From the NCBI GenBank assembly GCA_023134875.1, contig JAGLUH010000061.1, forward strand, positions 1 to 23,122: a DNA stretch of 23,122 nucleotides, in the 5' to 3' direction. A program made the translations under genes and the position numbers. This DNA is from Candidatus Zixiibacteriota bacterium (lineage in GTDB: Bacteria > Zixibacteria > MSB-5A5 > CAIYYT01). Below, piece after piece: positions 8,001 through 22,328 of this stretch. The notes below the pieces were generated by a model. That model was not told the origin of the DNA. It saw only the letters and a list, made by a program, of their open reading frames with translations, and made no database searches. Within the stretch, counting starts at the first letter, position 1. Each line of letters starts with the position of its first letter.

Positions 8001-8483
8001 GCGGCCGTTTTTGTCGATCTTAATGTTATTGGGTTTGATGTCCCGGTGAATAATACCCGCCTGGTGCGCCTCCCCCAGGCCGCGGCAAAGCTGCAGGGCC
8101 ACATCGACAATGTCGTCGATCGTTGGACCCCTCCGGTGTATAATCTCGCGCAGGGTTTCTCCCTCAACCAGTTCCATCACGATAAACGGTCGGCCCTGGT
8201 ACTCCGATATGTCGTGAATTGTAACGATATTGGGGTGATTGAGTGCTGCCGCGGACTGCGCCTCGCGCTCGAATCGCGCTCTCCATTCCACATCCATGCC
8301 AAGCCCAGGCAGTAGAAACTTGATGGCGACCTGACGCGACAGTTTGGTGTCTTCAGCCCGATAGACCTCACCGACACCACCATAGCCTATTCTCTCGATG
8401 ATCCGGTAGCTGGACACCAATGTCCCACGCCTCAGCAGCGTATAAGATCTGGTACTGCCGTCGTCGTTATGGTTAGGCGCCAT
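5025..8483 (-). CDS. Membrane Ser/Thr protein kinase with TolB/FlgO-like, TPR and propeller domains
   Basis: A eukaryotic-like kinase, numbered from ATG 8483. The Gly-rich loop is IGYGGVGEVY (32-41), the catalytic Lys55 is in VAIK, the catalytic loop HRDIKPNN is at 146-153, DFG is at 166-168 and SPEQ at 192-195. A single membrane span (about 302-320) separates the cytoplasmic kinase from an outside part. That part begins with IAVLPFENLSDD (about 345, TolB/FlgO-like N-terminal fold), then TPR-like repeats (about 510-575), a PQQ-like beta-propeller and another TPR-like pair. I chose 8483 over the in-frame Met at 8597 because AGGAG lies 8 nt upstream and because a promoter lies between the two. 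The frame ends at a TAA (5027-5025) but continues in frame beyond it. It is probably a sensor kinase; its ligand is unknown. Confidence 0.85.
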   Translation of the reverse strand: MAPNHNDDGSTRSYTLLRRGTLVSSYRIIERIGYGGVGEVYRAEDTKLSRQVAIKFLLPGLGMDVEWRARFEREAQSAAALNHPNIVTIHDISEYQGRPFIVMELVEGETLREIIHRRGPTIDDIVDVALQLCRGLGEAHQAGIIHRDIKPNNIKIDKNGRVRILDFGLAKMHRLTDITKTGSTLGTISYMSPEQALGEELDNRSDIFSLGIVLYEMAHSCRPFQGETEAAVLNAIINKDPEQIAGQIHTIPEKLSRIIAKALQKKWENRYQDIAEMARDLQKLKASLKAAELTASRKPWSVLKPIAITLGITALVLIALQQFAGEDTGPLYSTALALAPQETRIAVLPFENLSDDRENDYVSHSFSKELHAKLKYNSQLRLLAYEQFLDNLNPQVQKELLKKGKADYTVSGQIDQVGSAYEITFQLVEVTTNTVVKKEHCPVADLARFPTVQDQIIADITSYLGYGSVAEPANPFGYQSLSPQTQGLLRKGEFLLDKGEPEIALQVFEQAKEREPARFIIDYFLGLACEKLGRYREAIGHFKLSLTESRHSKIVETVISPDSFDYIRYDRGHEQRLWLEKRLADQATEITWYDYTGDSAVWEVVFKDRPAMVFIAEGAACAWGSTAFSSSAPDTGRIVGLSPENGEIVWQFTDTLREYYEFSWNKWDYEIDDLLHFTDRIHSREVFFDLSTGAVVYERSYQDDPSFSEVRRYNLLDSVLILSFTGKNPRSILAININSGEEIWSLDSTWLRILDNGQAIFFRKSTGEVTAIDIATGETVWSYGIDFAEDSIASVVSRDDQVLVFHENQLTSLRRNTGLLQSRRQWSISFDADRVSPVSWSEDFSRGTILLRSKSGAFVWLVDLTEGRILKQIDASALLPAKSGSQADTGAVLPNIAVSASGDTLLFQMKGELILFDAVSERVLARLDNPTSNQYLRLGSNVYTSGHHLLIKDRNLVHVFDLNRNVKVMKYQYPDDRIDDVFISPTGSATMIGYAGIVRIHLSELPTGAILAQQVYNRIADNYRRLDDYESALKYLDIVERDYDPSDVDMNYQRLLVEVERGNWVGALDVLRQSYELIKEYPQKKEKVISILQSRFNLDWIMEVNMRKQGSRHFQIARADSLSRELCAIYPSRDDCRIISISAAEGNQRWET

Positions 8484-8530
8484 CAAGACAACTCCTGTTT
8501 TGCCGTGCCCGTACAGACGTGCTGGTATTT

Positions 8531-8806
8531 TCAGAACCAAGTATACATCAGATCCGCTCCGATGGCAACCACTATCCGCGCCGCCGAATAACAACACGAT
8601 ATTCCGGGGTATGCTCTCAAGGTCTTCAATGGAGAGATTTCAAAAAACGAAATCTCGCGGCCGGTTATATCTCTGAAGAAACTGATCGCCACGGCGTCCC
8701 GCGTGGCGCTCAACCGGGTAATGATACTACCGGCGTCGAAAAACTTCCGCAGATCTCCTTTGGGATAGCCCCCCCCTCGTGCGTCGCGTCTTATGGTATA
8801 TGACAA
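8531..8806 (-). CDS. Uncertain small ORF after the NTPase gene
   Basis: A 91-codon frame starting at TTG 8806, directly after the NTPase stop codon (8809-8807), and ending at 8531 inside the kinase leader. I do not recognise the protein. It has a basic, Gly-rich start (RRDARGGGYPKGD), a central stretch ISFFRDITGREISFFEI that could be a beta-hairpin, and a hydrophobic tail. The TTG start, the absence of a clear ribosome site and the kinase promoter inside its 3' end all weaken the case. It could be a translationally coupled gene or chance. Confidence 0.25.
   Translation of the reverse strand: MSYTIRRDARGGGYPKGDLRKFFDAGSIITRLSATRDAVAISFFRDITGREISFFEISPLKTLRAYPGISCCYSAARIVVAIGADLMYTWF
8540..8568 (-). 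promoter_or_regulatory. Sigma70-like promoter of the kinase gene
   Basis: Minus strand: -35 TTGCCA (8563-8568, 5 of 6), a 17-nt spacer and -10 TATACT (8540-8545, 5 of 6). The predicted transcript would start near 8533, about 50 nt before the ATG at 8483. This excludes the longer start at 8597. Confidence 0.6.
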
Positions 8807-9938: not shown

Positions 9939-10937
9939 TCAGTCATCCTCCGCCAGTTGGTTCTCGATTGTTTCCAACAGATCGTCACGTTCCACCACAG
10001 CGGTACCGAGATGTTCGACCACCATGCCCGCCGCCTGGTTGGCGATGTAGGCTGCCTCCAGTTTGTTCGCACCGGCAGCAACCATTGCCGTCATTACCGC
10101 AATTACGGTATCTCCGGCGCCGGTGACATCATAGACCTTCTTGGCCACCGTCGGCAGATGGGAAAACATATCCTCTCGCTCAAACAGCGCCATTCCCTGG
10201 GGGCCAAGAGTAATTAGAAGCGATTCCAGATCGAGTTTATTGATTAGTCTCCAGCCCACTTGCTTGAGGGTATCGTCATCGACGATACGCATTCCCGCGG
10301 CAAACGAGGCTTCATTACTGTTGGGAGTAATCAGGGATACCTGCCGGTAGTTCTTGAAGTTGATCTCCTTGGGATCGACCGCAACAAACTTCCCCTTCTC
10401 TCGAGCCAACGCGACTATTTTTTTCAGCAGGTCAGGTGTTATCGCCCCTTTACCGTAATCGGAAATCAGCACACAGTCGGCCTCGTCGATTTTATCCTGG
10501 ATATGAGTAAACACTGCCGTTTCCGTGTAGCCATCTATCGGTTGCCGTGATTCCCGATCGGCACGCACCACCTGCTGCTGGTGAGCGATGATCCTGGTTT
10601 TCATAGTGGTGGGGCGCTTCTGGTCGCTAATCAATCTAAATCGGGAAATGCCCTCACGCTCCAGCAGGTATCTGATTTTGGTACCGTTATCATCATCACC
10701 GACCAGGCCGACCAATTCGATCCCACAGCCGAGGGAAACGATATTTCGGGCGACATTAGCTGCGCCGCCCAGAAGCAGTGATTCCCGTTCAATTTCCACT
10801 ACCGGTACGGGCGCTTCCGGCGAAATCCGATCCACCTTACCCCAGAGGTATTGATCGAGCATCAAATCACCGTAAACCAACACACGCCCGCTGGCAAGGT
10901 TGTCGAAAAGCTCTATGACTCTGCCTTTTGTAATCAT
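9939..10937 (-). CDS. rfaE1: D-glycero-beta-D-manno-heptose-7-phosphate kinase
   Basis: A 332-residue PfkB/ribokinase-family kinase equivalent to the N-terminal domain of HldE. It phosphorylates heptose 7-phosphate at C1 in the ADP-heptose pathway. Seen: VYGDLMLDQYLWGKVDRISPE at the start, the Gly-rich LLGGAANVARNI near 56-67 and the PfkB signature DVTGAGDT with catalytic Asp276 (GAGD 273-276). The length matches the family's kinase half. ATG 10937 lacks a strong ribosome site. It lies 18 bp downstream of the broken endonuclease and just upstream of rfaE2, with which it surely forms an operon. Confidence 0.92.
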   Translation of the reverse strand: MITKGRVIELFDNLASGRVLVYGDLMLDQYLWGKVDRISPEAPVPVVEIERESLLLGGAANVARNIVSLGCGIELVGLVGDDDNGTKIRYLLEREGISRFRLISDQKRPTTMKTRIIAHQQQVVRADRESRQPIDGYTETAVFTHIQDKIDEADCVLISDYGKGAITPDLLKKIVALAREKGKFVAVDPKEINFKNYRQVSLITPNSNEASFAAGMRIVDDDTLKQVGWRLINKLDLESLLITLGPQGMALFEREDMFSHLPTVAKKVYDVTGAGDTVIAVMTAMVAAGANKLEAAYIANQAAGMVVEHLGTAVVERDDLLETIENQLAEDD

Positions 10938-10955: not shown

Positions 10956-11542
10956 TTACCTGTTGGCGATTGCTGACGTATCAACTCCGATTATCATCAC
11001 GGGAATATCAATATCTGACACGCCTCGGTTTTCCAAGTCCCAAACGAATTGCTCAAAGTAAGATACGCCGCTTGACATTTCGTTCGCGAATGCCTTCACA
11101 GGGACGATCTCAACACCCGCATCGATGAAACCAAGATTGTGAAAAATAGTCATCTTGGCGCTCACATTGTAAACCATAAAAGCATTTTGCCGAACTGAAC
11201 TTCAATGCCCAGCTTGTCTTTTATGAAGTCCATTTCCCTGAATGCACCTTTGTTCAGTTCCAAAGGAGAATAGCCTTCCACATATAGATCAGTTGGATAA
11301 TCACATCTGACTCTCAGACTCTCCCAGTCCCTCTTATTGAACTGTATCTTGAAGGCTTTGTTTAGAGATACCGGACTATATAAAACAGTTCCGCGCATTA
11401 TCTTCTCTTCGCTTTTCTTGGTTTTGTGTTTCCGAGACTTGACATTAGCAATGACGTCCTGAACCTCGGATGGCAAATGTGGATACTCATCTTCGACCAC
11501 GGCCTGGCCATTGTTGAACGAATAGATAGCTGCTACTCTCAT
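10956..11542 (-). pseudogene. BglII-like restriction endonuclease, frameshifted
   Basis: Two minus-strand frames together encode one protein of about 195 residues (BglII is somewhat over 220). The first starts at ATG 11542, whose ATGA overlaps the methyltransferase stop, and runs through REMDFIKDKLGIEVQFGK. The second resumes as AFMVYNVSAKMTIFHNLG and ends with DIPVMIIGVDTSAIANR. One base is missing around 11184-11188: inserting one T after GGCAAA restores a reading with FGKYAFMVYN. The BglII active-site pattern D-x8-E-x-Q is present (Asp of MDF, Glu and Gln of EVQ), matching the spacing of Asp84, Glu93 and Gln95 in BglII. As sequenced, the first frame stops soon after the active site, so the enzyme is probably inactive unless this is a sequencing error. 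Confidence 0.8.
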
Positions 11543-12507
11543 TTCCGTTTGTCTTCCTTCGTCGCTTTCGCACCCCACTCAATGGGAACTTGTGATACTT
11601 TTTCCCTGCCAGTTGGTCTGTACACAGGCTTACCGATAGGTCTGATTTTCAAGTTGCCAGCGTAGAAGCTATCGATCCGCTGTCGGGCCAGAGAAATATA
11701 TGATTCCTCCTTGTCGACACCTACCGCCTTGCGATCGGTTTTGAGGGCCGCGATCAGGCTTGAACCAACGCCGCAGTACGGGTCCAGCACCCAGTCATTC
11801 TTGTTTGTTAACGCTAAAACGCAACGCTCCACTAACTCAATGGGAAACTGACAGGGATGAATGGTCTTCTCCGGGTGATTTGCTTTCACGTTAGGTATTT
11901 CCCATACACCTGAATTCCACTCCTCAGACATGAATTCCCAGAAATCAGACGGATTTTTCCCCAATGGATTGCCCGACGGTTTGCCGCGATTCGGCCCCTT
12001 ATAGAAGGTCTTTCCCGGGTATTTCGCTGGAATCCTGACATCGTCAAGATTGAAGACATAATTATCGCTTTTCGTGAACCACAACAGGGTTTCATACCTG
12101 CCCGAGAAACGCTTTGAAGCGTGGAGACCGTGATTGAAGTGCCAGATGATTCTGTTGCGAAGTTTCAAACCCTTTTTCTTGAAAATTCCATAATAGAACA
12201 CATCCAGTGGGAATACCTCAGACTTCAAAACAAAATTTTCCACCTGCCAGCAAAGGCTGCCGTTCCTTTTCAGCACTCGTATTAGTTCGTTGATAACGAC
12301 TTCTTGTCTGACCAAGTACTCCTTTATGCTAGTCTTTTTCTCATAGTCTTTGCCCAGATTGTAAGGGGGAGATGTTATGATCAACCGGAAGGTTTCATCA
12401 GGAAGAGTCTCTGCAAATTTAAGAGTATCCCCGGAATGCAAGACGATTTGGGCATTGTCCGAGAACTCAGCCTCAATAGGGGGTTTGGGAAAAAGCGGTA
12501 TGGTCAT
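11539..12507 (-). CDS. BglII-type DNA methyltransferase (probably N4-cytosine)
   Basis: A 322-residue amino-methyltransferase. The catalytic motif IV TSPPYNLG (45-52) comes first and the AdoMet motif I LDPYCGVGSS (about 241-250) last, the beta-class order. SPPY is typical of N4-cytosine enzymes, and the neighbouring BglII-like nuclease supports m4C in an AGATCT-like site. N6-adenine specificity cannot be excluded. It has a late FYAGNLKIRPIGKPVYR tail. The ATG at 12507 has GGAG 8 nt upstream. The stop shares ATGA with the endonuclease start. The gene is intact while its nuclease is broken, so it may now act as a solitary methylase. Confidence 0.88.
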   Translation of the reverse strand: MTIPLFPKPPIEAEFSDNAQIVLHSGDTLKFAETLPDETFRLIITSPPYNLGKDYEKKTSIKEYLVRQEVVINELIRVLKRNGSLCWQVENFVLKSEVFPLDVFYYGIFKKKGLKLRNRIIWHFNHGLHASKRFSGRYETLLWFTKSDNYVFNLDDVRIPAKYPGKTFYKGPNRGKPSGNPLGKNPSDFWEFMSEEWNSGVWEIPNVKANHPEKTIHPCQFPIELVERCVLALTNKNDWVLDPYCGVGSSLIAALKTDRKAVGVDKEESYISLARQRIDSFYAGNLKIRPIGKPVYRPTGREKVSQVPIEWGAKATKEDKRK

Positions 12508-12600: not shown

Positions 12601-12924
12601 ATGCAAAAGCCGCAGCAGCAACAGTTGAAAGTTGAACTAAAGGAACCGGAGAGCGAAGGTATCTACGCCAACCTGGCTATGATTGTACATTCGCCCTCGG
12701 AAATCATAATTGATTTCGCCCGTATTACGCCGGGAGTGCCGAAAGCGCGGGTTTACTCGCGGATTATCATGACGCCGCAGCATGCCAAGATGCTCCTGAA
12801 AACCCTTCAGGACAACCTGAAGAAATACGAGGATAAATTCGGCGAAATTAAGATTTATGGCGCGCCGGATAACAAGAACATCGGGTTTTCTCGACCCGGT
12901 GAAGGGGGAGAAGGGGACTCGTGA
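12601..12924 (+). CDS. DUF3467 family protein
   Basis: A 107-residue protein of the DUF3467 family, function unknown. Seen: an N-terminal Gln-rich start, then EGIYANLAMIVHSPSEIIID followed by FARITPGVPKARVYSRIIM and TPQHAKMLLKTLQDNLKKYE, the typical order of the family. It has a strong AGGAGG ribosome site. Its TGA overlaps the GTG start of the GH57 gene (GTGA), so the two are translationally coupled. The context hints at a role alongside glycan metabolism, but DUF3467 occurs in many contexts and this is weak. No signal peptide or membrane segment. Confidence 0.9.
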   Translation: MQKPQQQQLKVELKEPESEGIYANLAMIVHSPSEIIIDFARITPGVPKARVYSRIIMTPQHAKMLLKTLQDNLKKYEDKFGEIKIYGAPDNKNIGFSRPGEGGEGDS

Positions 12925-14654
12925 CCAAGGGTAAATTCACCTTCGTATTGCATTCTCATCTGCCCTATGTGCTCTCTCATGGCAGTTGGCCGCATGGTAC
13001 CGACTGGCTCAACGAAGCGGTGGCGGAGACCTATCTGCCGATTTTGAACATGCTCAACGGTCTCCTGGAGGAGGGCTACCACCCGAAAATCACGATCAGC
13101 ATTTCGCCGGTGCTGGCGGAACAACTGGCTCATGATTCCTTCAAGGATCAATTCGTCAGCTATTGCGAACAGAAAATCAAAGCCGCCGAGGCGGATATTG
13201 TGCAGTTTGCGCGCGAAGAGCGTAAGCTGATGTTGTCGGTGGCGGAGATGTGGCGCAATTATTATCGCGAGATTCTGGAGAGCTTCCGCAGCCGCTACCA
13301 TCAGGATATTCCCGCGGCCTTTGCCGATTTGCAGAATCGGGGTGTCGTTGAATTGATGACTTGCGCCGCCACGCATGGTTACTATCCATTATTGTCGCAG
13401 GATACTTCGCTTCAGGCACAGACCAATATGGCAGTCAAGGCTCATGAACGCCTTTTTGGCCGCAAGCCGCGCGGTTTGTGGCTGCCCGAGTGCGCCTACC
13501 GCCCGCGCTATCCCTGGGCGCCGCCGGTGGAGTCCGCTACCGATACCGAACCGTACCCCCGCAAGGGAGCGGATGAATTCCTCTCCGAAGCGGGCATTGA
13601 CTATTTTGTCATCGACTCCGCCCTCCTTCAGGGCGGGAAGTCAATCGGTGTCTACCTTGATCGTTTTGAATCCCTCAAGAAGTTATGGAACCAGTTTGAC
13701 AAGGAGTATCATCCGCGCGAGGTCGATGAGAACCGCTATCCGCATCAGGTTTACTTAGTCAATTCGGGCGGTGAGGGTAAACGTCCGGTAGCGATCTTCA
13801 CACGCGATCCCGATACCGGCCTGCAGGTCTGGTCGGGAGAGCATGGCTACCCCGGTGACGGCAACTACCTTGATTTTCACAAGAAACATTTCCCCGGCGG
13901 CCACCGCTATTGGAAAGTGACGTCCGCTAAATCAGACCTGGCCGACAAGATGGAGTATTATCCTCCCGATGCCGAGCAGCGCCTGCCGGAAAATGCCGTT
14001 CACTTCACTTCGCTGATTGACGAGACCCTCTCCCGTCACTATGAGACCACCGGCACCACCGGTATTCTGGCGGCTCCCTTTGATGCTGAACTGTTCGGGC
14101 ACTGGTGGTTTGAAGGGGTTCAGTTCCTGGGACTGGTGCTGAAGATGGTGGAGGAACTGGAACATATCGAGCTGACCACCTGTTCCGAGTACCTCGATTT
14201 CGCTAAACCCAGTCAGGTAATCTCAATTCCGGAGGGTAGTTGGGGTGAGGGCGGCTATCATTATATCTGGCTCAATGAGTGGGTGCATTGGACCTGGAAA
14301 CATATCTACGAAGATGAACTGACAATGCAGCGACTGGCGCGTGAGTACCGGGATGCTGACGATCCGGTGCTGGTTGATATTGTCAAACAGGCGGCACGCG
14401 AGTTGATGCTCCTGTCCGCTTCTGACTGGCAGTTCTTGATCTCCACCTGGTCGGCGCGTGACTATGCCGAACTGCGTGTCAGCGAGCATCACCAAGCTTT
14501 TGTACGACTGGCGCAAATGGCGGACAAACTGGGCGGCGGCGAATCCTTAACCACCGGCGAAAGGGCGTTCCTGGCCGATTGCCGCAAACGTGACCAGCTT
14601 TTCCCCGATATCGACCTGTCCTGGTTCGCCCAGGTTACTTATCCAGCCTGCTGA
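12921..14654 (+). CDS. GH57 1,4-alpha-glucan branching-type enzyme with DUF1957 domain
   Basis: A 577-residue glycoside hydrolase family 57 protein. The N-terminus FTFVLHSHLPYVLSHGSWPH is the GH57 start motif with the HSHLPY histidines. The nucleophile is Glu190 in LWLPECAY and the acid/base is Asp388 in PFDAELFGHWW, both matching the branching-enzyme subgroup. The C-terminal part (WVHWTWKHIYEDE and beyond) is the helical DUF1957 domain of that subgroup. It is expected to form alpha-1,6 branches in glycogen-like glucan in the cytosol; no signal peptide is seen. It starts at GTG 12921, overlapping the DUF3467 stop. Amylase-like activity is the main alternative. Confidence 0.9.
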   Translation: MTKGKFTFVLHSHLPYVLSHGSWPHGTDWLNEAVAETYLPILNMLNGLLEEGYHPKITISISPVLAEQLAHDSFKDQFVSYCEQKIKAAEADIVQFAREERKLMLSVAEMWRNYYREILESFRSRYHQDIPAAFADLQNRGVVELMTCAATHGYYPLLSQDTSLQAQTNMAVKAHERLFGRKPRGLWLPECAYRPRYPWAPPVESATDTEPYPRKGADEFLSEAGIDYFVIDSALLQGGKSIGVYLDRFESLKKLWNQFDKEYHPREVDENRYPHQVYLVNSGGEGKRPVAIFTRDPDTGLQVWSGEHGYPGDGNYLDFHKKHFPGGHRYWKVTSAKSDLADKMEYYPPDAEQRLPENAVHFTSLIDETLSRHYETTGTTGILAAPFDAELFGHWWFEGVQFLGLVLKMVEELEHIELTTCSEYLDFAKPSQVISIPEGSWGEGGYHYIWLNEWVHWTWKHIYEDELTMQRLAREYRDADDPVLVDIVKQAARELMLLSASDWQFLISTWSARDYAELRVSEHHQAFVRLAQMADKLGGGESLTTGERAFLADCRKRDQLFPDIDLSWFAQVTYPAC

Positions 14655-14684
14655 GTGATAACTCACTGTCTGAGATCAGTCAGC
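14650..14684. other. Imperfect hairpin at the end of the GH57 gene
   Basis: Arms GCTGAGTGAT (14650-14659) and ATCAGTCAGC (14675-14684) pair at 9 of 10 positions around a 15-nt loop and overlap the stop codon. No T-run follows on the plus strand, so it is not a classical intrinsic terminator, though it could stabilise the transcript end. Confidence 0.3.
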
Positions 14685-14753
14685 GGGGATACTTACTGCC
14701 CGTTATTGACACCTGCATAATAAATGTCCTGTATTCTGGGTGGGAGGTGAATA

Positions 14754-15031
14754 ATGAGACCTCATAGAAGTCCAGAACAGTTGGAGAATCGCAGACGGCG
14801 TGCAATCAGGTTGTTGGAAGAAGGATACCAGCCGGTAGATGTGGCAAGGACGTACAGGTCGACCGACGCAGTGTTCGTCGATGGAAGCGGGCGTACAGCC
14901 GCGAGGGTATAGAAGGAATCCAAGCTCGACTAACGCAAGGACGGCCACCAAGGCTGGACCGCACGGCCAAGGCTCGGCTCGAAGAGGTGTTGTTGAAGGG
15001 CGAGCCAGGGCAGCAGGGGGAAGAAGGTTGA
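14754..15031 (+). pseudogene. IS630-like transposase N-terminal remnant, frameshifted
   Basis: From ATG 14754 (GGAGGT 5 nt upstream) the frame reads MRPHRSPEQLENRRRRAIRL, then LLEEGYQPVDVARTYRSTDA, and then falls out of frame near 14868-14870. The continuation in another frame reads SVRRWKRAYSREGIEGIQAR, then RPPRLDRTAKARLEEVLLKG, and stops at TGA 15029-15031. This is the paired helix-turn-helix N-terminal region of IS630-type transposases. The DDE catalytic domain is absent, so the element is truncated and dead. A TTGACA at 14706-14711 may be an old promoter -35. No terminal repeats are identified. It borders the hgcAB end of the redox block. Confidence 0.75.
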
Positions 15032-15044
15032 GAGTCTTTTGACT

Positions 15045-15341
15045 TCAGCAGCATGAGGCATCCTTGGCACAGTCGCAGGTCGGTTCAGTCCCCCTCAGCG
15101 ACCCTATCATGATGGCGTAAGCACAGCCCACGCCGGCATCGACCGTCAGCGCGCCTTCCGGACAATTACGGGCACATGCTCCGCATTCCATGCAAGCGTC
15201 GGCGTCATCTATCTTGCTTCTTTTCTCCTCGATGGCAAAAACAGCGTGCGGGCACACGATCGTACACATAGTGCAGCCAGTGCATTTCTCGATATCCAAC
15301 TTAAGAGTGGTGACATCCGGTATATATCGTAGTCCGACCAT
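15045..15341 (-). CDS. hgcB: HgcB, 4Fe-4S ferredoxin of mercury methylation
   Basis: A 98-residue ferredoxin-like protein. It has two 4Fe-4S motifs (Cys20, 23, 26, 30 and Cys50, 53, 56, 60), a lone Cys73 in GVGCA, and a tail CDCAKDASCC ending in vicinal Cys97-Cys98. This set, directly after hgcA, is the signature of HgcB, which is thought to reduce the HgcA corrinoid and to bind Hg(II) through its C-terminal cysteines. The start ATG 15341 has GAGGT 5 nt upstream, overlapping the hgcA stop; the gap to hgcA is 8 nt. The open frame extends far upstream, but that part is only the shadow of hgcA. A generic ferredoxin is the alternative, but context and tail argue against it. Confidence 0.93.
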   Translation of the reverse strand: MVGLRYIPDVTTLKLDIEKCTGCTMCTIVCPHAVFAIEEKRSKIDDADACMECGACARNCPEGALTVDAGVGCAYAIMIGSLRGTEPTCDCAKDASCC

Positions 15342-15349
15342 TGTTGACC

Positions 15350-16483
15350 TCACACAAACAGGCCTATTGTCCACAGCCCTACCCCGATCACGGCGCAGCA
15401 TATCTGAATAGGCAGGGCAACGCGCATTTCCTTCAATACGCCCGACAATGAAGTGTAAGTCGAACTCCCGGTGAAATTCATTGCCAAGAAACTGGAGACG
15501 ACCGGCACGATGACTAACCACCCGGCGACGGACCACTGGTTTCGGAAAGTCTCTGGAGAGTGTGACGCATACCACCAAATCCCGGCAGCCAGGATTATGC
15601 CGACCCAGACACCCTTGATCGAAAAGGACCGCCCCGGCAACCAGGGCAACAAAGCCGGCGGTACAGTGGTACCAGCCACATAGGCGAGGAGGATCAACAG
15701 CCCACTTGCCATACCGTACTCCGCAATGCGATCCAGCGAGTAGACGCCTGGCCCCAGACCTGACAATAACATGAAGCAAACGGCTGCACAGAGAGCATAT
15801 TTCGCTGACAGAACCAATTCGGCTGGGATCAGCACGATGCGCTCACGAATACCGAATCTGACCTGCCGCATCTCTGGAGTAGTTTTCATGTCCGCTTCCA
15901 GAAAAGCCTGAATATCGCGCGCCCGAATCGGGCCATACCTAACGCGAAAACCACTGTACTTCTTCACTTCGTGTGCTGCCACGCCGGCGGCGCCAAGCTG
16001 CGGAAGAATCAGCTTTCGGTGCGAGACGACTTCGCTCAATCGAACGCTCCTTACGCGCGCGACGATCTCATCTGTGCCAAAGGTTCCTTTGCCGGCGGCA
16101 CACCAGACATTGATACCGTGAGTATTGATGACAAGAATCCATGAGTCAGTGCCATTCAAGCAGGATCGCAGCCTGTCGAAGCTCATCTTGTAGTTGGCCG
16201 ACACCAGTACCGGCGACTTGTCGGTAGGGCGCCCCACCGCATACAAACCCGGCTCCACTCGAGACGCCATTCTGCCGACTCCCCAGCGCGCCTTGTATGA
16301 CCCGATCTTATCAGAGCTCAGCAGACGAGTAGTGACGACTGGGACTTGACCAACAGGGGTCTGAATAGTGCCAGATATCCAGTGTCTACTCAGCTTCGAC
16401 ACGTCCCTATCCCCGATCTGCACGGCAGGCTGACAACAGGTCTGGCGGTCTGGTTTGTTCGCTTGGTGCGCGCGCTTATTCAT
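15350..16483 (-). CDS. hgcA: HgcA, membrane corrinoid protein of mercury methylation
   Basis: A 377-residue protein with the defining HgcA cap-helix motif NVWCAAGKGTF (125-135). Cys128 is the expected lower-axial ligand of the corrinoid cobalt. The N-terminal half is the soluble corrinoid-binding domain (VLVSANYKMSFDRLR, SWILVINTHGINVWC, VVSHRKLILPQLGAAGVAAH). The C-terminal half from about 215 carries roughly five membrane spans, as in known HgcA. HgcA passes a methyl group to Hg(II), giving methylmercury, with HgcB as partner. ATG 16483 is preceded by a possible promoter at 16544-16572. An odd point is a vicinal Cys16-Cys17 near the N-terminus. CFeSP (acetyl-CoA pathway) is the related family, but it lacks this motif and the membrane domain. 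Confidence 0.95.
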   Translation of the reverse strand: MNKRAHQANKPDRQTCCQPAVQIGDRDVSKLSRHWISGTIQTPVGQVPVVTTRLLSSDKIGSYKARWGVGRMASRVEPGLYAVGRPTDKSPVLVSANYKMSFDRLRSCLNGTDSWILVINTHGINVWCAAGKGTFGTDEIVARVRSVRLSEVVSHRKLILPQLGAAGVAAHEVKKYSGFRVRYGPIRARDIQAFLEADMKTTPEMRQVRFGIRERIVLIPAELVLSAKYALCAAVCFMLLSGLGPGVYSLDRIAEYGMASGLLILLAYVAGTTVPPALLPWLPGRSFSIKGVWVGIILAAGIWWYASHSPETFRNQWSVAGWLVIVPVVSSFLAMNFTGSSTYTSLSGVLKEMRVALPIQICCAVIGVGLWTIGLFV

Positions 16484-16529
16484 TGGGTTACACTCTTTAT
16501 TCCCGTGCGGTTAGCCTTGCCGCCGTATC

Positions 16530-16572
16530 CTATTCTTCATAATAAGATAGTGTTGTCAGCAAGAAAGGTCAA
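16530..16572 (-). promoter_or_regulatory. hgcA promoter with overlapping dyad
   Basis: Minus strand: -35 TTGACC (16567-16572, 5 of 6), a 17-nt spacer and -10 TATCTT (16544-16549, 4 of 6). An imperfect dyad at 16530-16550 (plus-strand arms CTATTCTT and AAGATAG, one-base bulge) covers the -10 and start region, where a repressor could bind. ArsR-type regulators are linked to hgcAB elsewhere, but none is encoded in this window. Confidence 0.4.
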
Positions 16573-16589
16573 CTCAGAATAGCAGCCGG

Positions 16590-18083
16590 TTAGTCCGAGA
16601 ACAGGTTCAAGAATTCGTCTCTTAGGTACTTGTGCCTCTCGTAGTTCGGGTCTGTGCTGTCAGCCGGTTGCAGGAATTTGAATGGTTCCGCCTGCCGATC
16701 GGCCAGAATCGAATGACACAACACGCAATCGTATGATAATCGGCTGCCGTTCTGATCGACGAGCTTTGAGTTGTGGCAACGGAAACAACCGTGCTCGTCT
16801 ATATGCCCGATGTGGCTGGGATACGTCCCCCAGGTGATATTCATCTCGGGATGCACATTCCTCTCGTATATCGTCTGCAATACTTCAACCACTGAATCGA
16901 TAGCCGCCATCCTGCGGCGCGCTGTCTCTGGGTAATGCCGCTGGTAGAAGCCGTGCATGTGGTCTGCGATCCCTTCGAGTCCTGCTTGTTTGCTAGCATA
17001 GCTGCTTGAAATAGCATGAAGAGCTTCCCGCTTCAGAAATGGCAGCGATCGGTCTATTAACCTGAGGCTTATCCGTTCGTTGATCGCTCTTTCCGGATTC
17101 TCATAGATATGCGTAACACGATTGTGGCAATCGACGCAATCCATCGTTCTTGTTCCGGAGCTGCCGGCGTTGAGGTGTGTCAGCTCTCGGTTCGTGTAGC
17201 GATGTCTGCTACCGTCAGGCCGAGCGACCTCCACCGAGATTATCTTCTCTCGCTCATCATTCACCGATACATAGCGCACCTTGGTTTCCTCGGAGACATG
17301 CCAGTGTATACCGGTCTTCATGTCGCCTTTACCGGCATCGATCTTCAGATTCAGGGTTGTGTAAAGCGGAAGTGAGGTTTCATCCTGAGCATAACTGGTA
17401 ATGGTTTTGAGTTTGCTGCCATAGAATTTCTCCGGCCAGTGGCATTTCTCGCATGTCTCACGAGCGGGGCGCAACTGATGCACAGGTGTCGGTATCGGGC
17501 GTTCAAGAAGATTGAAGGTAACGGAAATCAATTGCCAGATGCCATTCAGTTTGCTGTCGACAAGCGCATCCGCCCCCTCACCGACGTGGCAGTCGACACA
17601 CCTGACGCGCGCATGAGGTGATTGCTGGTAGGTTGTCCATTCCGGATTCATCACGCTGTGACAGGCAGTCCCGCAGAACACAGGTTCGTCCATGAAGCTG
17701 AGCATCCGAAAACTGATTGTGCTCATGAAGAGTATATTGAGAACTGCCAGAGTGCCAATCGTCACAAACAGCTTTGATCCGAAAAGGCCGGTGCTGAGAC
17801 ATTCCCGATCGAAATGCTCATCCAGAAGTTGCTTGGTGGTTTTTCCGGTTTGTTTCTTGAGCTTGTACCATCCTATCGGAATCAGAATCAGACCGATAAT
17901 GAACAGAGATGGGAACAGCAGGTAAGTGACAAGCCCTGTGAGAGAGCTGGTAATGATTCCGAGAATGCGGGCAAGCTCCAGTACCACGAGTGTGACAAAC
18001 GAAGAGGTGGCGAGGATGACACCAAGCCTGCTATACCAGTTTACCGATACGCCTCGTGCGAATCTGATGAACCTTACGAACAA
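16590..18083 (-). CDS. Membrane-anchored hexahaem c-type cytochrome (NapC/NirT-like)
   Basis: A 497-residue protein with about three N-terminal membrane spans (around 15-40, 47-72 and 105-127), then a periplasmic domain with six haem c motifs: one CxxxCH (CGTACH) and five CxxCH (CVDCH, CEKCH, CVDCH, CFRCH, CVLCH). The first two, in FCGTACHSVMNPEW and SPHARVRCVDCH, resemble the NapC/NirT/NrfH quinol dehydrogenase family. It probably passes electrons from membrane quinol to the secreted octahaem protein encoded 9 bp upstream. The start is TTG 18083, with GAGG 6 nt upstream; no ATG gives the first span. The protein is longer than NapC (about 200 residues), so it is a larger relative. Redox partners are inferred. 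Confidence 0.82.
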   Translation of the reverse strand: MFVRFIRFARGVSVNWYSRLGVILATSSFVTLVVLELARILGIITSSLTGLVTYLLFPSLFIIGLILIPIGWYKLKKQTGKTTKQLLDEHFDRECLSTGLFGSKLFVTIGTLAVLNILFMSTISFRMLSFMDEPVFCGTACHSVMNPEWTTYQQSPHARVRCVDCHVGEGADALVDSKLNGIWQLISVTFNLLERPIPTPVHQLRPARETCEKCHWPEKFYGSKLKTITSYAQDETSLPLYTTLNLKIDAGKGDMKTGIHWHVSEETKVRYVSVNDEREKIISVEVARPDGSRHRYTNRELTHLNAGSSGTRTMDCVDCHNRVTHIYENPERAINERISLRLIDRSLPFLKREALHAISSSYASKQAGLEGIADHMHGFYQRHYPETARRRMAAIDSVVEVLQTIYERNVHPEMNITWGTYPSHIGHIDEHGCFRCHNSKLVDQNGSRLSYDCVLCHSILADRQAEPFKFLQPADSTDPNYERHKYLRDEFLNLFSD

Positions 18084-18092
18084 GCCACACCT

Positions 18093-19427
18093 CTACTTAT
18101 TCTCAAAGAGGTCATTGTAGATGTTCTGCATCTCGCCCGAACGAATCTTCTCCTTCAGTTCTCCGGTCGGAGTGGACAGCCAGGCGTGCATGGGATCGTC
18201 TGTGGTCAATTTATCGATATAGGCATTCAGTACCGGATCATTGAAGTCACGCGCTTCAGGCAACATCTTGAAGTAGAAATGCTGAGCTACGTCATAGATG
18301 CCGTGCCACCAGGTGTAATCGGGACCCATCATGGCCGCGCCGTGCCGAGCCCGCCGCCCTTCGTGATGCCACAGTTCCCAGTACGTCCACTCGATTTTGT
18401 TGCCAAAGGCAGCCGGGTTCTCTAAGAGCTTGCGCTCCTTGATAATGCTCATAATCTCGGTCGCGGGTTTGGCGAACTTCTCGTTGTACAGCTTCACCAA
18501 AGCATCAAATTGGTAGTAGTGACCGTCTGCGAAGTTGGCACAGTGACAGGCAGTGCATACGCTCCTCATGTTGGCGCGTTTAGCCTGCCATTCCTCCTTG
18601 TACTCGGAGATCGGCGGCCGCAAGGTCCAGCTAATGCGCAGACCTACGTCGTGCGTCATGGCCATTGACACAGTGGCTGACAAATGACACGTCGCACAAG
18701 TCGGTGCCTCAAAGTAGTCAACGCCGACAACCCAATGGTCAGAATCGATGTTCATCTTGTCCATGTTGGTGTAGTACGCGTTACCATGCTTGGACTCCTC
18801 ATAGATTTCCTTCTGAGGATGATCCGGACCAAGGTGGCACTTCGAGCAGGCTTCGGGTTTTCGGGCCTGAGCAATTGAGAACGAATGCCGCGTATGACAG
18901 GTGGTGCACGATCCCTTGGATCCGTCGGGATTAAGTCTGCCGATTCCGGAGTTGGGCCAGCTTTTCCGGGACAGCTTGTTGGGCGAGTTCGGATCGATCT
19001 GCACTTTCCCCCCATGGCAGCTCTCACATCCCGCGATGGCCACCGGTTCACCGCCAGCGACATGAGCGAGGTAGGCATCCCTGGAATCGAGTATCTGACC
19101 GGCAGTAGCGTGGTAGGAGTTCTCGACTTCAGCCGCCTGTTTCTTGTGGCACGCTCCGCAGTCTTGGGGTGTCACCAGCGTGGCGATAAGCGCACCTTCG
19201 TGCAAGTACCCGTCGTCGTCGCCCTTCTGGGCACCATGACAGTCGACGCATGTGACTTTGTGCATGGCGTGCGGGGACATAAACCACTGCTGGTATAACC
19301 CTGGGGATTTCTCTTTGTGACAGGTCATACATGTGCCGGCGACCTGAGCACTCTCTGCTGCCGTTGTACTCGCAGTCAGTCCGACAAGAACCAGTAGCAT
19401 TACAGCAGTGCAGAACAACCTATTCAT
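18093..19427 (-). CDS. Secreted octahaem cytochrome c, hydroxylamine oxidoreductase-like
   Basis: A 444-residue protein with a signal peptide (1-24, AVMLLVLVGLTASTTAA) and eight CxxCH haem motifs: CMTCH (33-37), CVDCH, CGACH, CESCH, CTTCH, CSKCH, CATCH and CTACH (291-295). The later part (MTHDVGLRISWTLRPPIS and FADGHYYQFDALVKLYNEKF) is characteristic of the HAO-related family. Members oxidise hydroxylamine or, in anaerobes, reduce nitrite, NO or hydroxylamine. Tyrosines follow the last haem motif, but whether one serves as the HAO cross-link tyrosine cannot be judged without alignment. ATG 19427 has a perfect AGGAGG 6 nt upstream. It is followed 9 bp later by the hexahaem membrane cytochrome, a likely electron donor pair. 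Confidence 0.82.
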   Translation of the reverse strand: MNRLFCTAVMLLVLVGLTASTTAAESAQVAGTCMTCHKEKSPGLYQQWFMSPHAMHKVTCVDCHGAQKGDDDGYLHEGALIATLVTPQDCGACHKKQAAEVENSYHATAGQILDSRDAYLAHVAGGEPVAIAGCESCHGGKVQIDPNSPNKLSRKSWPNSGIGRLNPDGSKGSCTTCHTRHSFSIAQARKPEACSKCHLGPDHPQKEIYEESKHGNAYYTNMDKMNIDSDHWVVGVDYFEAPTCATCHLSATVSMAMTHDVGLRISWTLRPPISEYKEEWQAKRANMRSVCTACHCANFADGHYYQFDALVKLYNEKFAKPATEIMSIIKERKLLENPAAFGNKIEWTYWELWHHEGRRARHGAAMMGPDYTWWHGIYDVAQHFYFKMLPEARDFNDPVLNAYIDKLTTDDPMHAWLSTPTGELKEKIRSGEMQNIYNDLFENK

Positions 19428-19762
19428 AATAATCCTCCTGTTCCCTCACAGATGGTACAATGAAAAATCCTGCGTTCCTCGCCAGAGTGCTATCTGACAA
19501 GGCAATCACACCTCTAAGCGATTCCGCAACTTGTGTTGTGTTCAACACACTGCGATTGTCATCCCCTGTCAACAAAAACTGCACCATTTGTAGTTTAATA
19601 ACGAACCTGCGCCAGAAGTCGACTGTCATCATCGAATATGCCCAGAACGACGGATCCGGATTCTCCGCTTCAGCGAATGAGTCTGGTGAGAGGAAGACGC
19701 TTCCTCCTACGGGCTATGAACGGTCACGTCACTCGAGATGATCAGCATACCAACTCTGGTTC
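19428..19762. other. Leader region of the HAO-like operon, no gene
   Basis: No supportable gene lies here; a 70-codon minus frame overlaps the HAO start and looks fortuitous. The stretch carries a TTGACA (19567-19572, minus) 17 nt from a palindrome that occupies the -10 position, and the ribosome site of the HAO-like gene. It separates the hcp remnant from the cytochrome operon. Confidence 0.5.
19537..19572 (-). promoter_or_regulatory. Candidate operator/promoter of the cytochrome operon
   Basis: A perfect 13-bp dyad TGTGTT-C-AACACA (19537-19549) sits exactly 17 nt downstream of a consensus -35 TTGACA (19567-19572). It takes the place of a -10 that itself matches TATAAT poorly. This is the arrangement of a regulated promoter; the regulator is unknown, and a Crp/Fnr-size dimer would fit. 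Confidence 0.35.
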
Positions 19763-19885
19763 TTACAGCATGTCTTTTGCATCCTCTTCAACAGTTGTGA
19801 TAGGCCTGATATCGAATTTCTCAAATAGGACCTTCACGACATTAGGTGAGAGGAATGCTGGAAGTGTCGGTCCCAGCCGGTACCC
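19763..19885 (-). pseudogene. Hybrid cluster protein (hcp) C-terminal remnant
   Basis: In the frame ending at TAA 19765-19763 the minus strand reads [20 protein letters not shown], then [20 protein letters not shown]. This is the C-terminal signature of hybrid cluster protein/hydroxylamine reductase ([12 protein letters not shown], then a terminal TxEED helix). Only about 40 codons remain; the rest of the gene, with all cluster ligands, is missing. It overlaps, in another frame, the last codons of the upstream 4Fe-4S gene, as if a deletion joined the end of that gene to the end of hcp. Crp/Fnr-type HcpR, ferredoxin and hcp are known neighbours, which supports the call. Confidence 0.75.
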
Positions 19886-20606
19886 GTTCGCACTTGAATC
19901 CGCCCTGAATGCCGATCGTGTGCACATCGACCGGCGTATTCGGGATTACCTCGTTGTGTGCCTGAATCGCCGCCTGAGCAATTCCACTGCAACACGGCAC
20001 TTCCATCATCAGCACCGTCAATTTTCGCGGAGCAGCTTCTGCAAAGATGTCCTTCAGCTTCTCGAGGTAGAACTGCAGATCGTCGAGTTTCGGACAGCCG
20101 ACGAGAACAGCACGCCCCGCAAGGTAGCGTTGGTGAAAGTCGGGAACCGCGAATGGAACACAGTCCGCACAAATCAGGATGTCAGCGTTCTTCAGGAAGG
20201 GCGCTGCCGGCGATACAAGCATCAACTGCACGGGCCAGTGGCTCAACTGGGAAGGGCCCGCTGGCGTGGGAGTACCACTCTGCGCCGCGGTTGGCGCAAA
20301 CCGGCGCATTGCTGATCCAGGACAGGCAGGAGCCGCAGCCTGTGGCAGAGATGTCTTTTTCTTCGTTTGCTTCTGGTGCCGCTCAACTTCAGCCTGATCG
20401 AAAGCTGCAGCTTCGCGCTCCTCGATGGTGATCGCATCCTGCGGACACTCTCCCAGGCATGCACCGAGTCCGTCACAATATGTCTCACTAACCAGTCGCG
20501 CCTTGCCGTCGATAATCTGAATAGCTCCTTCAACGCAGGCTGGCACACACAGCCCACAGCCATCGCACTTCTCCTCATCAATCTTGATGATCTTTCTGAT
20601 AGTCAT
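19842..20606 (-). CDS. 4Fe-4S dicluster ferredoxin-like protein (Hcp-associated type)
   Basis: A 254-residue protein. The N-terminus has a ferredoxin domain with two clusters: [11 protein letters not shown] (Cys14, 17, 20, 24) and a less regular second set in [14 protein letters not shown] Lys/Ala-rich linker with a CPGS motif follows, then a domain with [39 protein letters not shown] and EVPCCSGI. Its extra cysteines suggest another metal or redox site. This family is often found with Hcp and Crp/Fnr regulators and probably supplies electrons. ATG 20606 has GAGGAG 6 nt upstream, and an FNR-like box lies about 82 bp upstream. About the last 11 residues are read from hcp-derived DNA out of frame, so the native C-terminus is lost. 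Confidence 0.85.
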
Positions 20607-20688
20607 AGAATACTCCTCAATCTCCCCGGTCGGGGGTTCTGCTTCCAGTCTTCAGTTTTAAGGATCGGAAATTGGACTGATTCAGGCC

Positions 20689-20702
20689 TTGATCTAAGTC
20701 AA
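20689..20702. promoter_or_regulatory. FNR-like binding site
   Basis: TTGATCTAAGTCAA matches the FNR consensus TTGAT-N4-ATCAA at 9 of 10 defined positions. It lies between the regulator's stop (20708) and the ferredoxin start (20606), where it could activate transcription of the latter. The regulator encoded next door has a matching recognition helix. Confidence 0.65.
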
Positions 20703-20707
20703 AGATG

Positions 20708-21385
20708 TCAGATTCTTTCGCCGTTGGCGATAGCCTGTAGGCGGGCAGGATCCAGGATTGTGATGTTCTTTCCCTTGACGTGAATCATATTCAGTTCACG
20801 CATCTTCTTGAGGTTACGGGACAATGTCTCGCTGATTGTGCCCAGCGAGCGGGCCAGCTCGGCTTTGGTGGTCTCGAGAGTAACCTGCGGGCAACCAGAC
20901 TGTTCCGCTTTTCTCAGCAGGTAGGAAGCAAGTCTGGCTGAGACCTCTTTGAGCGACAAGTCCTCGATCTGGCGATTGAAGTCCCTGACAAAACCGGAGA
21001 GAGCGGCAATCATCTTCAGCGACATCTCGGGAGAGCTCGCGATCAACTCGGTAAAGCGGTCCTTGGGAAAAAACGCGATGACAGAGTCCTTTGTTGCTGT
21101 GCTGTTGGCGGGAAAGGTCTCACCTCCAAACATGGCGGCTTCAGCGAACATCTGACCGGGGTGAATGCGGTGCAGAGTGTATTCCTTACCATCAGCTGAA
21201 GCTTTGTAGATGCGGATGCAGCCGGACAGCAACACATAGAACCCGCTTGCCGGGTCGCCCTCGAAGAATATTATTTTGCCTCTGTTCACACGATAAATCG
21301 AGGCAATTCTGGCGAGGTCTGCCAACTCCCGCCGGTTGAGGTCCTTACACAAGTAGCACCGACGCAGAAGATTTTGAGCATCCAT
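20708..21385 (-). CDS. Crp/Fnr-family transcriptional regulator (HcpR/FNR-like)
   Basis: A 225-residue regulator. The N-terminal cyclic-nucleotide-binding-like barrel (GKIIFFEGDPASGFYVLLSG, GQMFAEAAMFGGETFPANST) is followed by a long dimer helix and a winged HTH (TKAELARSLGTISETLSRNL). The recognition helix carries E-T-L-S-R, the E-xx-S-R pattern of FNR that reads TTGAT half-sites, rather than the R-E-xxx-R of CRP. Only two N-terminal cysteines (CYLC) are present, so the classical four-Cys 4Fe-4S sensor of FNR is absent; haem or another ligand is possible, as in HcpR/DNR. I chose ATG 21385; an in-frame TTG at 21427 would add 14 residues but overlaps the likely promoter. It likely controls the adjacent ferredoxin. 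Confidence 0.88.
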   Translation of the reverse strand: MDAQNLLRRCYLCKDLNRRELADLARIASIYRVNRGKIIFFEGDPASGFYVLLSGCIRIYKASADGKEYTLHRIHPGQMFAEAAMFGGETFPANSTATKDSVIAFFPKDRFTELIASSPEMSLKMIAALSGFVRDFNRQIEDLSLKEVSARLASYLLRKAEQSGCPQVTLETTKAELARSLGTISETLSRNLKKMRELNMIHVKGKNITILDPARLQAIANGERI

Positions 21386-21392
21386 TGTCTCA

Positions 21393-21421
21393 ATAGTAGA
21401 ACTGTTGCGCTGAATTGACAA
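21393..21421 (-). promoter_or_regulatory. Candidate promoter of the regulator gene
   Basis: Minus strand: -35 TTGTCA (21416-21421, 5 of 6), a 17-nt spacer and -10 TACTAT (21393-21398, 4 of 6). The predicted start falls only a few bases before ATG 21385, so the transcript would be nearly leaderless, consistent with the lack of a clear ribosome site there. Confidence 0.35.
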
Positions 21422-21431
21422 GCGCAAAGTT

Positions 21432-21458
21432 GTAGGTCATGATCTCCTGGAGCATGAC
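21432..21458 (+). repeat. REP-like hairpin, single copy
   Basis: GTAG, then arms GTCATGATC and GAGCATGAC (8 of 9 pairs) around loop TCCTG. It is the same 27-nt layout as at 3760, 3807 and 22418. Its relation to the 3760 copy extends over about 35 bp with 29 matches. It sits between the pentapeptide gene and the regulator gene. Confidence 0.55.
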
Positions 21459-21500
21459 AATCTTGGTGCGCGGCAGTCGTCCTCGCCTTCTGCGCTATCA

Positions 21501-22328
21501 TTACTCACTCTCTTCTTCCTCTTTCTCTCGATCTTCCCGCTTGAGGTAATCGGGTAATTTGGTTTTGTCGTCTATCTTTGCGCCTTTCAATTGCTTCCAC
21601 GTGAGGTCTTCCGCACCCGTTAGATCAGCGTACCGCATATCTGTATCTTGAAGATTCGCGCCCGTCAAGCAAGCACCCTGTAGGTTCGCGCTACACAGGT
21701 TAACGCCCTCAAGATTAGTGTGAAACAGTCTAGCGCCCTGAAGATTAGCAAACCACAAGTTAGCATCCTGAAGGTTGGCATATGATAGGTTAGCGCCCTG
21801 AAGATTAGCAAACCACAAGTTAGCATTCTGAAGGTTGGCGAACGCCAAGTTAACGCCCTGAAGGTTAGCCTTTCGCAAGTGAGCGCGCTGAAGTTCAGCC
21901 CATCCCAAGTTGGCGCCCTGTAGATTAGCACCCATCAGGTTAGCGCCCTGAAGATTTGCACTCCACAAGCTTGGCAACGGTGCCTTCATTTCATTCAATC
22001 GTCTGATTATTCCTACCTTGCGCAGCACGCCTTCTTCGCCCTTCCATGTCCGAAAGTCGTCAAGCTGATCATGGTAATTGCGAATCTTCCTTTTCCGCTC
22101 CAGCCACCTGCCATAGATCGTCAGGATTACGCCAAACAGGATTATGTCGAAGAAAAAACCACACAGTTCCACCACTATGTCATCCACCTTGTCGACCAGG
22201 CTGTTTCTAAGAAATAAGAGCGCAACCAGCAGACACAGTGCCGCTAAAGAAAACAACAGAATTGGGCTATTCTCAGTAAGAACACGCCGCCTGATCTTGC
22301 GGATATTACGTGCCAAAGCTATTCTCAC
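21501..22328 (-). CDS. Membrane-anchored pentapeptide-repeat protein
   Basis: A 275-residue protein with a basic N-terminus, two membrane spans (about 23-42 and 52-72), a charged cytoplasmic linker, and from about residue 125 an array of pentapeptide repeats of the form A(N/D)LxX (ANLQGANL, ANLWFANLQG). These fold as a right-handed beta-helix. It ends in a highly acidic tail (EDREKEEEESE). The start is GTG 22328, with GGAGG 6 nt upstream; the nearby ATG runs into a stop. The function of such membrane pentapeptide proteins is unknown. Mimicry of DNA is known for some soluble members but cannot be assumed. A 60-bp unit inside the gene is duplicated. Confidence 0.85.
   Translation of the reverse strand: MRIALARNIRKIRRRVLTENSPILLFSLAALCLLVALLFLRNSLVDKVDDIVVELCGFFFDIILFGVILTIYGRWLERKRKIRNYHDQLDDFRTWKGEEGVLRKVGIIRRLNEMKAPLPSLWSANLQGANLMGANLQGANLGWAELQRAHLRKANLQGVNLAFANLQNANLWFANLQGANLSYANLQDANLWFANLQGARLFHTNLEGVNLCSANLQGACLTGANLQDTDMRYADLTGAEDLTWKQLKGAKIDDKTKLPDYLKREDREKEEEESE
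21731..21840. repeat. Internal 60-bp tandem duplication in the pentapeptide gene
   Basis: Positions 21731-21780 and 21791-21840 agree at 48 of 50 bases with a period of exactly 60 bp, that is four pentapeptides. This is a recent expansion of the beta-helix by nearly one full turn. Confidence 0.8.

What the first reader, a model, noticed from the sequence alone, without database searches (positions are those of the whole stretch)
15045..16483. hgcAB mercury-methylation pair in a probable non-classical host
HgcA carries NVWCAAGKGTF with Cys128 plus a five-span membrane tail. HgcB carries two 4Fe-4S motifs, Cys73 and a terminal CC. All determinants known to matter are intact and the genes are 8 nt apart. 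The surrounding genes do not look like the classical sulfate- or iron-reducing Deltaproteobacteria, so this would extend or refine the host range of mercury methylators.
Basis: partly seen in the sequence, partly recalled or inferred. Interest (0 to 1): 0.82.

Follow-up and report, generated by a model that had tools for sequence, protein, structure and literature searches.

The report
Mercury-methylation gene pair in Zixibacteria
An uncultured bacterium of the candidate phylum Zixibacteria carries an intact pair of genes of the kind that makes methylmercury; this is a further case of a known gene pair in a group whose database entries already include it, not a new kind of system.

Summary
The pair is real. 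hgcA (15350-16483) and hgcB (15045-15341), minus strand, lie 8 nt apart and pass NCBI's curated cut-offs (449.7 bits against 275; 121.6 against 99). Cap-helix Cys128, about five hydrophobic spans, two 4Fe-4S motifs, Cys73 and a terminal CC are present. The window is a whole contig of a 77%-complete genome that I infer to be Zixibacteria from contig-length matches to named records. The contig looks coherent: its heptose-kinase gene is the genome's only copy above cut-off and is closest to the same family. HgcA lies in a supported 33-row clade whose 15 rows of known origin are Zixibacteria; 18 are unnamed. HgcA is above cut-off in 17 of 132 genomes of the phylum, but in 0 of 4 other held family members. 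GenBank already names HgcA in Zixibacteria. Activity is untested. Side observations: HgcA's N-terminal CC is in the register where other HgcA have C-TGA (selenocysteine, already published), and a CC-rich module precedes hgcA in several relatives, not here.

The parts
15350..16483 (-). hgcA, membrane corrinoid protein, 377 aa; Cys128 in NVWCAAGKGTF; N-terminal CC at residues 16-17; hydrophobic tail compatible with five spans
   Evidence: NF040863 449.7 bits, cut-off 275; translation and cysteine positions
15045..15341 (-). hgcB, dicluster ferredoxin, 98 aa; two CxxCxxCxxxCP motifs, Cys73, terminal CC
   Evidence: NF040864 121.6 bits, cut-off 99
15342..15349 (-). 8-nt gap between hgcA stop and hgcB start
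   Evidence: read from the sequence
16544..16572 (-). promoter-like TTGACC-17-TATCTT in the 106-nt gap upstream of hgcA; consensus match only
   Evidence: 11 such sites in 14600-21600, 4.2 expected from shuffles
14754..15031 (+). degenerate helix-turn-helix (transposase-like, my reading) remnant in two frames, close to the end of hgcB
   Evidence: HTH_32 31.8 bits for the piece 14852-15031, under its cut-off 33.7; no family for the piece 14754-14912; no second copy in the genome
16590..18083 (-). NapC/NrfH-like multihaem cytochrome, next gene upstream
   Evidence: PF03264; 55-64% matches in 34 other genomes of the phylum; no NrfH-like match in the other hgcA loci held
18093..19427 (-). multihaem cytochrome with eight CxxCH
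   Evidence: PF13447 98.4 bits; hydrazine dehydrogenase model matches at 70.9 bits, far under its cut-off 900; 69-80% identical gene beside the NrfH-like gene in the 11 best NrfH-like matches outside the window
19842..20606 (-). 4Fe-4S protein upstream of the cytochromes
   Evidence: Fer4; 64% match in G022 in the same cluster
20708..21427 (-). Crp/Fnr-type regulator
   Evidence: PF00027, PF13545; 62% match in G022 in the same cluster
12921..14654 (+). GH57 glucan branching enzyme; follows DUF3467 and hldE in relatives; anchors the contig in the phylum
9939..10937 (-). HldE kinase domain; the only copy over cut-off in the genome; best matches in the host's own family
   Evidence: 67-72% in G001-G004, at most 56% in the other listed matches

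Best explanation
A standard HgcAB mercury methyltransferase in an uncultured Zixibacterium. Shown by sequence: family membership, cap-helix and ferredoxin cysteines, gene pairing, and placement of HgcA in a Zixibacteria clade; the five-span tail is supported by hydropathy only. Inferred from published work on P. mercurii ND132: HgcB's clusters reduce the HgcA corrinoid to Co(I), S-adenosylmethionine methylates it with thiolate ligation from the cap-helix Cys (here Cys128), the HgcB tail cysteines may deliver Hg(II), and methylmercury results. hgcAB is probably transcribed from its own promoter or by read-through from the upstream cytochrome genes (inference). The pair most likely descends from an hgcAB carried within Zixibacteria that was lost, or moved, several times inside the phylum.
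For: Both proteins are over curated cut-offs. In the PDB a profile of 30 chosen relatives finds four CFeSP large/gamma sequences within profile positions 76-200, and one weak other match (mS56, E 0.081). Key cysteines are present; Cys128 is invariant and its motif invariant or nearly so in the 30-row alignment. HgcA lies in a 33-row clade (SH-aLRT 96) in which the 15 rows of known origin are Zixibacteria (12 by locus with the window, 3 by NCBI name, one of these nearly identical to a locus row) and 18 are unnamed. Contig anchors: hldE kinase 67-72% in the same family against at most 56% in the other listed matches, the only copy over cut-off in the genome, and the hldE-DUF3467-GH57 order shared with relatives. 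The roles of C93, C73, C94/C95 and SAM are from passages of PMC11588087.
Against: No activity data. The four other held genomes of the family lack HgcA, so recent transfer within the phylum is about as good as loss. The HgcA tree used the quick method; 42 of 107 inner branches are open. The genome is 77% complete in 651 contigs. ND132 was not fetched or aligned. A structure job was accepted but had not finished when last asked.
Confidence: 0.9

Rival explanations
1. An HgcA-like paralogue that does not methylate mercury (HgcAB-like fusion family or CFeSP).
For: The HgcAB-like fusion model NF043039 matches at 208.7 bits and CFeSP gamma at 69.9 bits.
Against: Both are below their cut-offs (285 and 306), while NF040863 is far above its own; the genes are separate, and the cap-helix Cys, Cys73 and terminal CC are present.
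Confidence: 0.03
2. hgcAB was acquired recently by horizontal transfer from another Zixibacterium, beside a transposase-like remnant.
For: 0 of 4 other family members have HgcA; a degenerate helix-turn-helix remnant lies close to hgcB; the upstream NrfH-like gene has 55-64% matches in 34 genomes of other families but only 35-37% matches in the family; a restriction-modification pair at lower GC lies a few kb away.
Against: The pair's GC is like most of the contig. Among the 120 listed of 8000 proteins the nearest is 68% identical (P0005), apart from P0003, a 100% identical 306-aa record listed without a source, so no recent donor is seen. GH57 is likewise missing or only weakly matched in the four relatives, so loss there is also plausible.
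Confidence: 0.4
3. The contig is a chimera or a binning error and hgcAB belongs to another organism.
For: Fragmented genome with 3.17% contamination; the nearest families differ along the contig (hldE: own family; GH57 and NrfH-like: other families).
Against: Within the phylum each tested part has good relatives, and HgcA itself is in a Zixibacteria clade; only the phylum's genomes were searched for hldE, GH57 and the NrfH-like protein, so closer relatives outside it were not tested. hldE kinase on this contig is the only copy over cut-off in the genome.
Confidence: 0.05

Closest known systems
HgcAB of Pseudodesulfovibrio mercurii ND132 (mercury methylation pair)
   Same: Corrinoid membrane protein with a cap-helix Cys and five helices, and a dicluster ferredoxin with Cys73 and two C-terminal cysteines (roles from passages of PMC11588087 and PMC7305189); the window has the same features by motif
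   Different: Host phylum. The N-terminal CC at 16-17 was not compared with ND132, whose sequence was not fetched.
HgcA of other Zixibacteria (P0014, P0053, L021, L024, L027, L030, L067 and unnamed G genomes)
   Same: Same clade; 17 of 132 genomes over cut-off, the window's included
   Different: 7 of the 14 Zixibacteria loci with over 1.5 kb upstream (window included in the 14) have a DsbD-like gene within 4 kb of hgcA, one of them weak; the window instead has a multihaem cytochrome cluster upstream
CFeSP large/gamma subunit
   Same: Corrinoid-binding domain, within profile positions 76-200
   Different: No cap-helix Cys (per PMC7305189); no membrane tail (recalled)
Selenocysteine HgcA (CU) listed in PMC13188914
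   Same: The N-terminal Cys pair is in the same register
   Different: The window has CC, not C-TGA

Membership tests
HgcA (NF040863) | Whole-protein score over curated cut-off 275 | tested here: met
   449.7 bits
HgcA (NF040863) | Cap-helix N(V/I)WCAAGK motif with Cys | tested here: met
   NVWCAAGK, Cys128; Cys128 invariant in A1
HgcA (NF040863) | C-terminal domain of five membrane helices | tested here: inconclusive
   Hydropathy compatible with five spans; structure job not finished
HgcA (NF040863) | Falls with HgcA, not CFeSP | tested here: met
   Profile scores. The tree holds HgcA relatives only, with no CFeSP outgroup, so it does not test this by itself
HgcB (NF040864) | Score over cut-off 99 | tested here: met
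   121.6 bits
HgcB (NF040864) | Two 4Fe-4S motifs, Cys73, terminal CC | tested here: met
Mercury methylator | hgcA and hgcB adjacent and both intact | tested here: met
   8 nt apart, no stops inside
Mercury methylator | Methylates Hg(II) | not testable with these tools
   No culture, no assay
HgcAB-like fusion (NF043039) | Score over cut-off 285, single fused protein | tested here: not met
   208.7 bits, separate genes
Classical sulfate-reducing host | dsrA in the genome | tested here: inconclusive
   None found, but the genome is 77% complete and none of the 14 control genomes passed the cut-off

The most novel reading that the evidence does not exclude
HgcAB in Zixibacteria and several other phyla may be fed by a thiol relay made of vicinal-cysteine proteins: a CC-bearing DsbD/CcdA-like membrane protein and a CC-bearing, possibly thioredoxin-like protein, often under a CC-bearing ArsR-type regulator, encoded directly upstream of hgcA. 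It would hand Hg(II), or reducing power, to HgcA's N-terminal CC and HgcB's tail. The window would be a natural variant in which the relay is missing or replaced.
Probability: 0.15. Interest if true: 0.6.

Novelty: new member of a known kind. Interest (0 to 1): 0.27.

Why it matters
Among the held genomes it adds a family to the likely methylmercury producers in a candidate phylum, and shows the trait is patchy there (17 of 132 genomes), so 16S surveys would predict it poorly (inference). The CC-rich module seen beside hgcA in relatives gives a testable lead on how Hg(II) reaches HgcAB, which I believe is still open (recalled, not checked).

Tried and rejected
The upstream cytochrome cluster as a general partner of hgcAB: rejected. 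Among the other hgcA-bearing loci held at that point (flanks of varying length) no NrfH-like match was found, and one octahaem match at 22% (L093). Five of the 34 other genomes with a 55-64% NrfH-like match also have hgcA (G079, G080, G011, G111, G122), and in all five the two lie on different contigs.

An hgcAB empty site in family relatives: not obtained. GH57 is missing in 3 of 4 and only weakly matched in the fourth. G002's contig ends at hldE, G003's about 1.2 kb past DUF3467, and G001's begins at hldE; G004's goes on for about 7.4 kb past DUF3467 without a match to any window gene.

Selenocysteine HgcA as a new discovery: 16 of 89 deduplicated HgcA loci have an in-frame C-TGA in the register of the second Cys of CC. 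3 more have TGA there without a Cys before it (one, L067, is a Zixibacteria copy with a Met just after, probably a plain upstream stop), none has TAA or TAG there, and 4 of 89 could not be judged at contig edges. This is in print: PMC13188914 lists HgcA with CU (passages), and PMC11588087 says some hgcA and hgcB homologues may be selenoproteins (passages).

The DsbD/CcdA-like gene elsewhere in the host: not found in the window's genome or its four relatives, while three genomes known to carry it ring (one being the query's own genome); the window's genome is 77% complete.

Literature: hgcA with Zixibacteria, 2 papers: PMC8261052, passages seen, no report of hgcA in Zixibacteria there; PMC11382960, listing only. 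Mercury methyl with Zixi, 3 papers: PMC8261052 again; PMC11212195, passages; PMC10415106, listing only. Putative methylators, 21 papers, listing. hgcA with MSB-5A5, none. Methylators in mangrove sediments, PMC11205478, passages, no Zixi in its main text. hgcA with CcdA, none. HgcAB structure terms, 6 papers, listing, two of them seen in passages. hgcA with selenocysteine, 3 papers, one seen in passages. hgcAB with gene neighborhood and thioredoxin, only PMC7438021 (passages). Liu et al. 2023 ISME J on mangrove methylators, in the reference list of PMC11212195 and cited there beside Zixibacteria, is not held and was not read. Haft and Gwadz 2023 is not held.

Structure prediction: five tries met a busy machine; the job was accepted and had not finished.

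Full report
Observation. hgcA runs 15350-16483 and hgcB 15045-15341, both on the minus strand, with 8 nt between them. HgcA scores 449.7 bits with NF040863 (cut-off 275) and HgcB 121.6 with NF040864 (cut-off 99); the HgcAB-like fusion and CFeSP gamma models match below their cut-offs. Pfam sees the CdhD domain in residues 74-194 of HgcA. Cysteines of HgcA: 16, 17, 108, 128, 232, 236, 362, 363. HgcB has two CxxCxxCxxxCP motifs, Cys73 and Cys97-98. Hydropathy is compatible with five spans after residue 215. Among solved structures a profile of 30 relatives, chosen from the 120 listed, finds four CFeSP large/gamma sequences within profile positions 76-200 and one match at E 0.081 to a chain named mS56.

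Host. The window is one whole contig, G000:C568, of a genome of 2.77 Mb in 651 contigs, 77.24% complete with 3.17% contamination. The tool's phylum holds 132 genomes.

Is the contig sound? The hldE kinase gene is 67-72% identical to those of the four other held family members and at most 56% in the other listed matches in the phylum. It is the only copy over cut-off in the genome; two other matches are at about 34 bits. DUF3467 and GH57 keep the order seen in relatives, although GH57's best matches lie in other families and it is absent or weak in the four family members. The NrfH-like gene has 55-64% matches in 34 other genomes but only 35-37% ones in the family. The octahaem-type gene stands beside it at 69-80% identity in the 11 best matches outside the window, and in G022 the regulator and the 4Fe-4S protein are there too, with one further frame between. 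GC is 0.49-0.56 along the contig, apart from the restriction-modification part at 0.46-0.47. Only genomes of this phylum were searched for these flanking genes.

Distribution and descent. HgcA is above cut-off in 17 of 132 genomes, and 18 of 132 have some match; none of the four other family members has one. In a quick tree of 110 rows the window lies in a 33-row clade (SH-aLRT 96). Of these 33 rows, 12 come from this phylum by locus (the window included), 3 are named Zixibacteria by NCBI (P0014 is nearly identical to the G096 row), and 18 are unnamed metagenome proteins. Five other Zixibacteria rows lie outside it (G097 next to it; G043 and G042 with a Poribacteria row; G038; G122). 20 labelled Zixibacteria rows among 92 rows counted need 4 changes on the tree. 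So one main lineage within the phylum with patchy presence, plus some separate origins, fits best; 42 of 107 inner branches are open, and transfer within the phylum cannot be told from loss.

Mechanism. From passages of PMC11588087 and PMC7305189: a conserved HgcA Cys ligates cobalt, HgcB's clusters reduce it, SAM donates the methyl group, and C73, C94 and C95 of HgcB are crucial in ND132. The window has cysteines at the corresponding features, by motif and not by an alignment with ND132. Activity is inferred, not shown.

Neighbourhood. A promoter-like site lies in the gap upstream of hgcA, but such sites are over-abundant in this region (11 found, 4.2 expected). Between hgcB and GH57 lies a degenerate helix-turn-helix remnant with a sub-cut-off match to HTH_32 and no second copy in the genome. 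In relatives, a DsbD/CcdA-like gene lies within 4 kb of hgcA, on either side or strand, in 7 of 17 Zixibacteria loci (14 of which have over 1.5 kb upstream; one of the 7 is weak at 60 bits) and in 15 of 72 others. In 16 of 89 loci it ends within 160 nt of the start of the hgcA frame on the same strand, and 15 of these 16 proteins contain a vicinal CC. Of the six strong Zixibacteria cases all six have a second, Cys-rich gene before it and five an ArsR-type gene. Pfam was run on two loci only: both DsbD-like proteins match DsbD_TM and both regulators HTH_5, while of the two Cys-rich proteins one matches Rdx weakly and the other nothing, so thioredoxin-like is my guess. The window has none of these genes, and the DsbD-like gene was not found in its genome, while three genomes that carry it ring. 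ArsR and arsenic genes near hgcAB are published (PMC7438021 passages); I found no paper on the DsbD-like gene in the searches named, which cover one open-access library only.

N-terminal cysteines. 44 of 89 deduplicated HgcA loci have CC in the 75 residues before the core, the window included, as have 12 of 17 Zixibacteria loci; this was counted on stop-to-stop frames, so some CC may lie upstream of the true start. In 16 of 89 an in-frame C-TGA stands in that register, with 3 further TGA and no TAA or TAG. The published CU form of HgcA (PMC13188914 passages) explains this. It suggests that the window's CC at 16-17 matters; that is an inference.

Novelty. GenBank already names HgcA in Zixibacteria (P0014, P0053), so this is a new member of a known kind. 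I found no paper reporting hgcA in this phylum, but a likely one (Liu et al. 2023) is not held and was not read.

Noticed in passing
L021, L027, L114, L115, L118, L119 and others, upstream of hgcA: A DsbD/CcdA-like membrane protein, with a Cys-rich protein and often an ArsR-type regulator before it, many with vicinal CC, directly precedes hgcA in several phyla.
   Followed up: partly
L040, L043, L046, L049, L053, L055, L059, L060, L064, L066, L070, L073, L080, L081, L093, L100: In-frame C-TGA in the register of HgcA's N-terminal CC (16 of 89 loci); the selenocysteine form is already published.
   Followed up: yes
window 11162-12507: DNA methylase and weak BglII-like endonuclease match (24.3 bits, cut-off 26) at lower GC between hldE and DUF3467, which adjoin each other in the relatives G003 and G004; looks like an inserted restriction-modification system.
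   Followed up: partly
window 14754-15031: Transposase-like helix-turn-helix remnant broken across two frames, between GH57 and hgcB.
   Followed up: partly
window 16590-21427: Crp/Fnr regulator, 4Fe-4S protein, octahaem-type cytochrome and NrfH-like cytochrome; the NrfH-like gene has close matches in 34 other genomes of the phylum. Possibly nitrite or hydroxylamine reduction (inferred).
   Followed up: partly
L020 and L010 (G065 contigs C61 and C556): Two hgcA pieces at contig ends in one genome (8% contamination): two copies or strain mixture.
   Followed up: no
window 21501-22328: Pentapeptide-repeat protein with a 30-nt repeat array.
   Followed up: no
window 5025-8597: 1190-aa serine/threonine kinase with TPR and BamB-like regions.
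   Followed up: no
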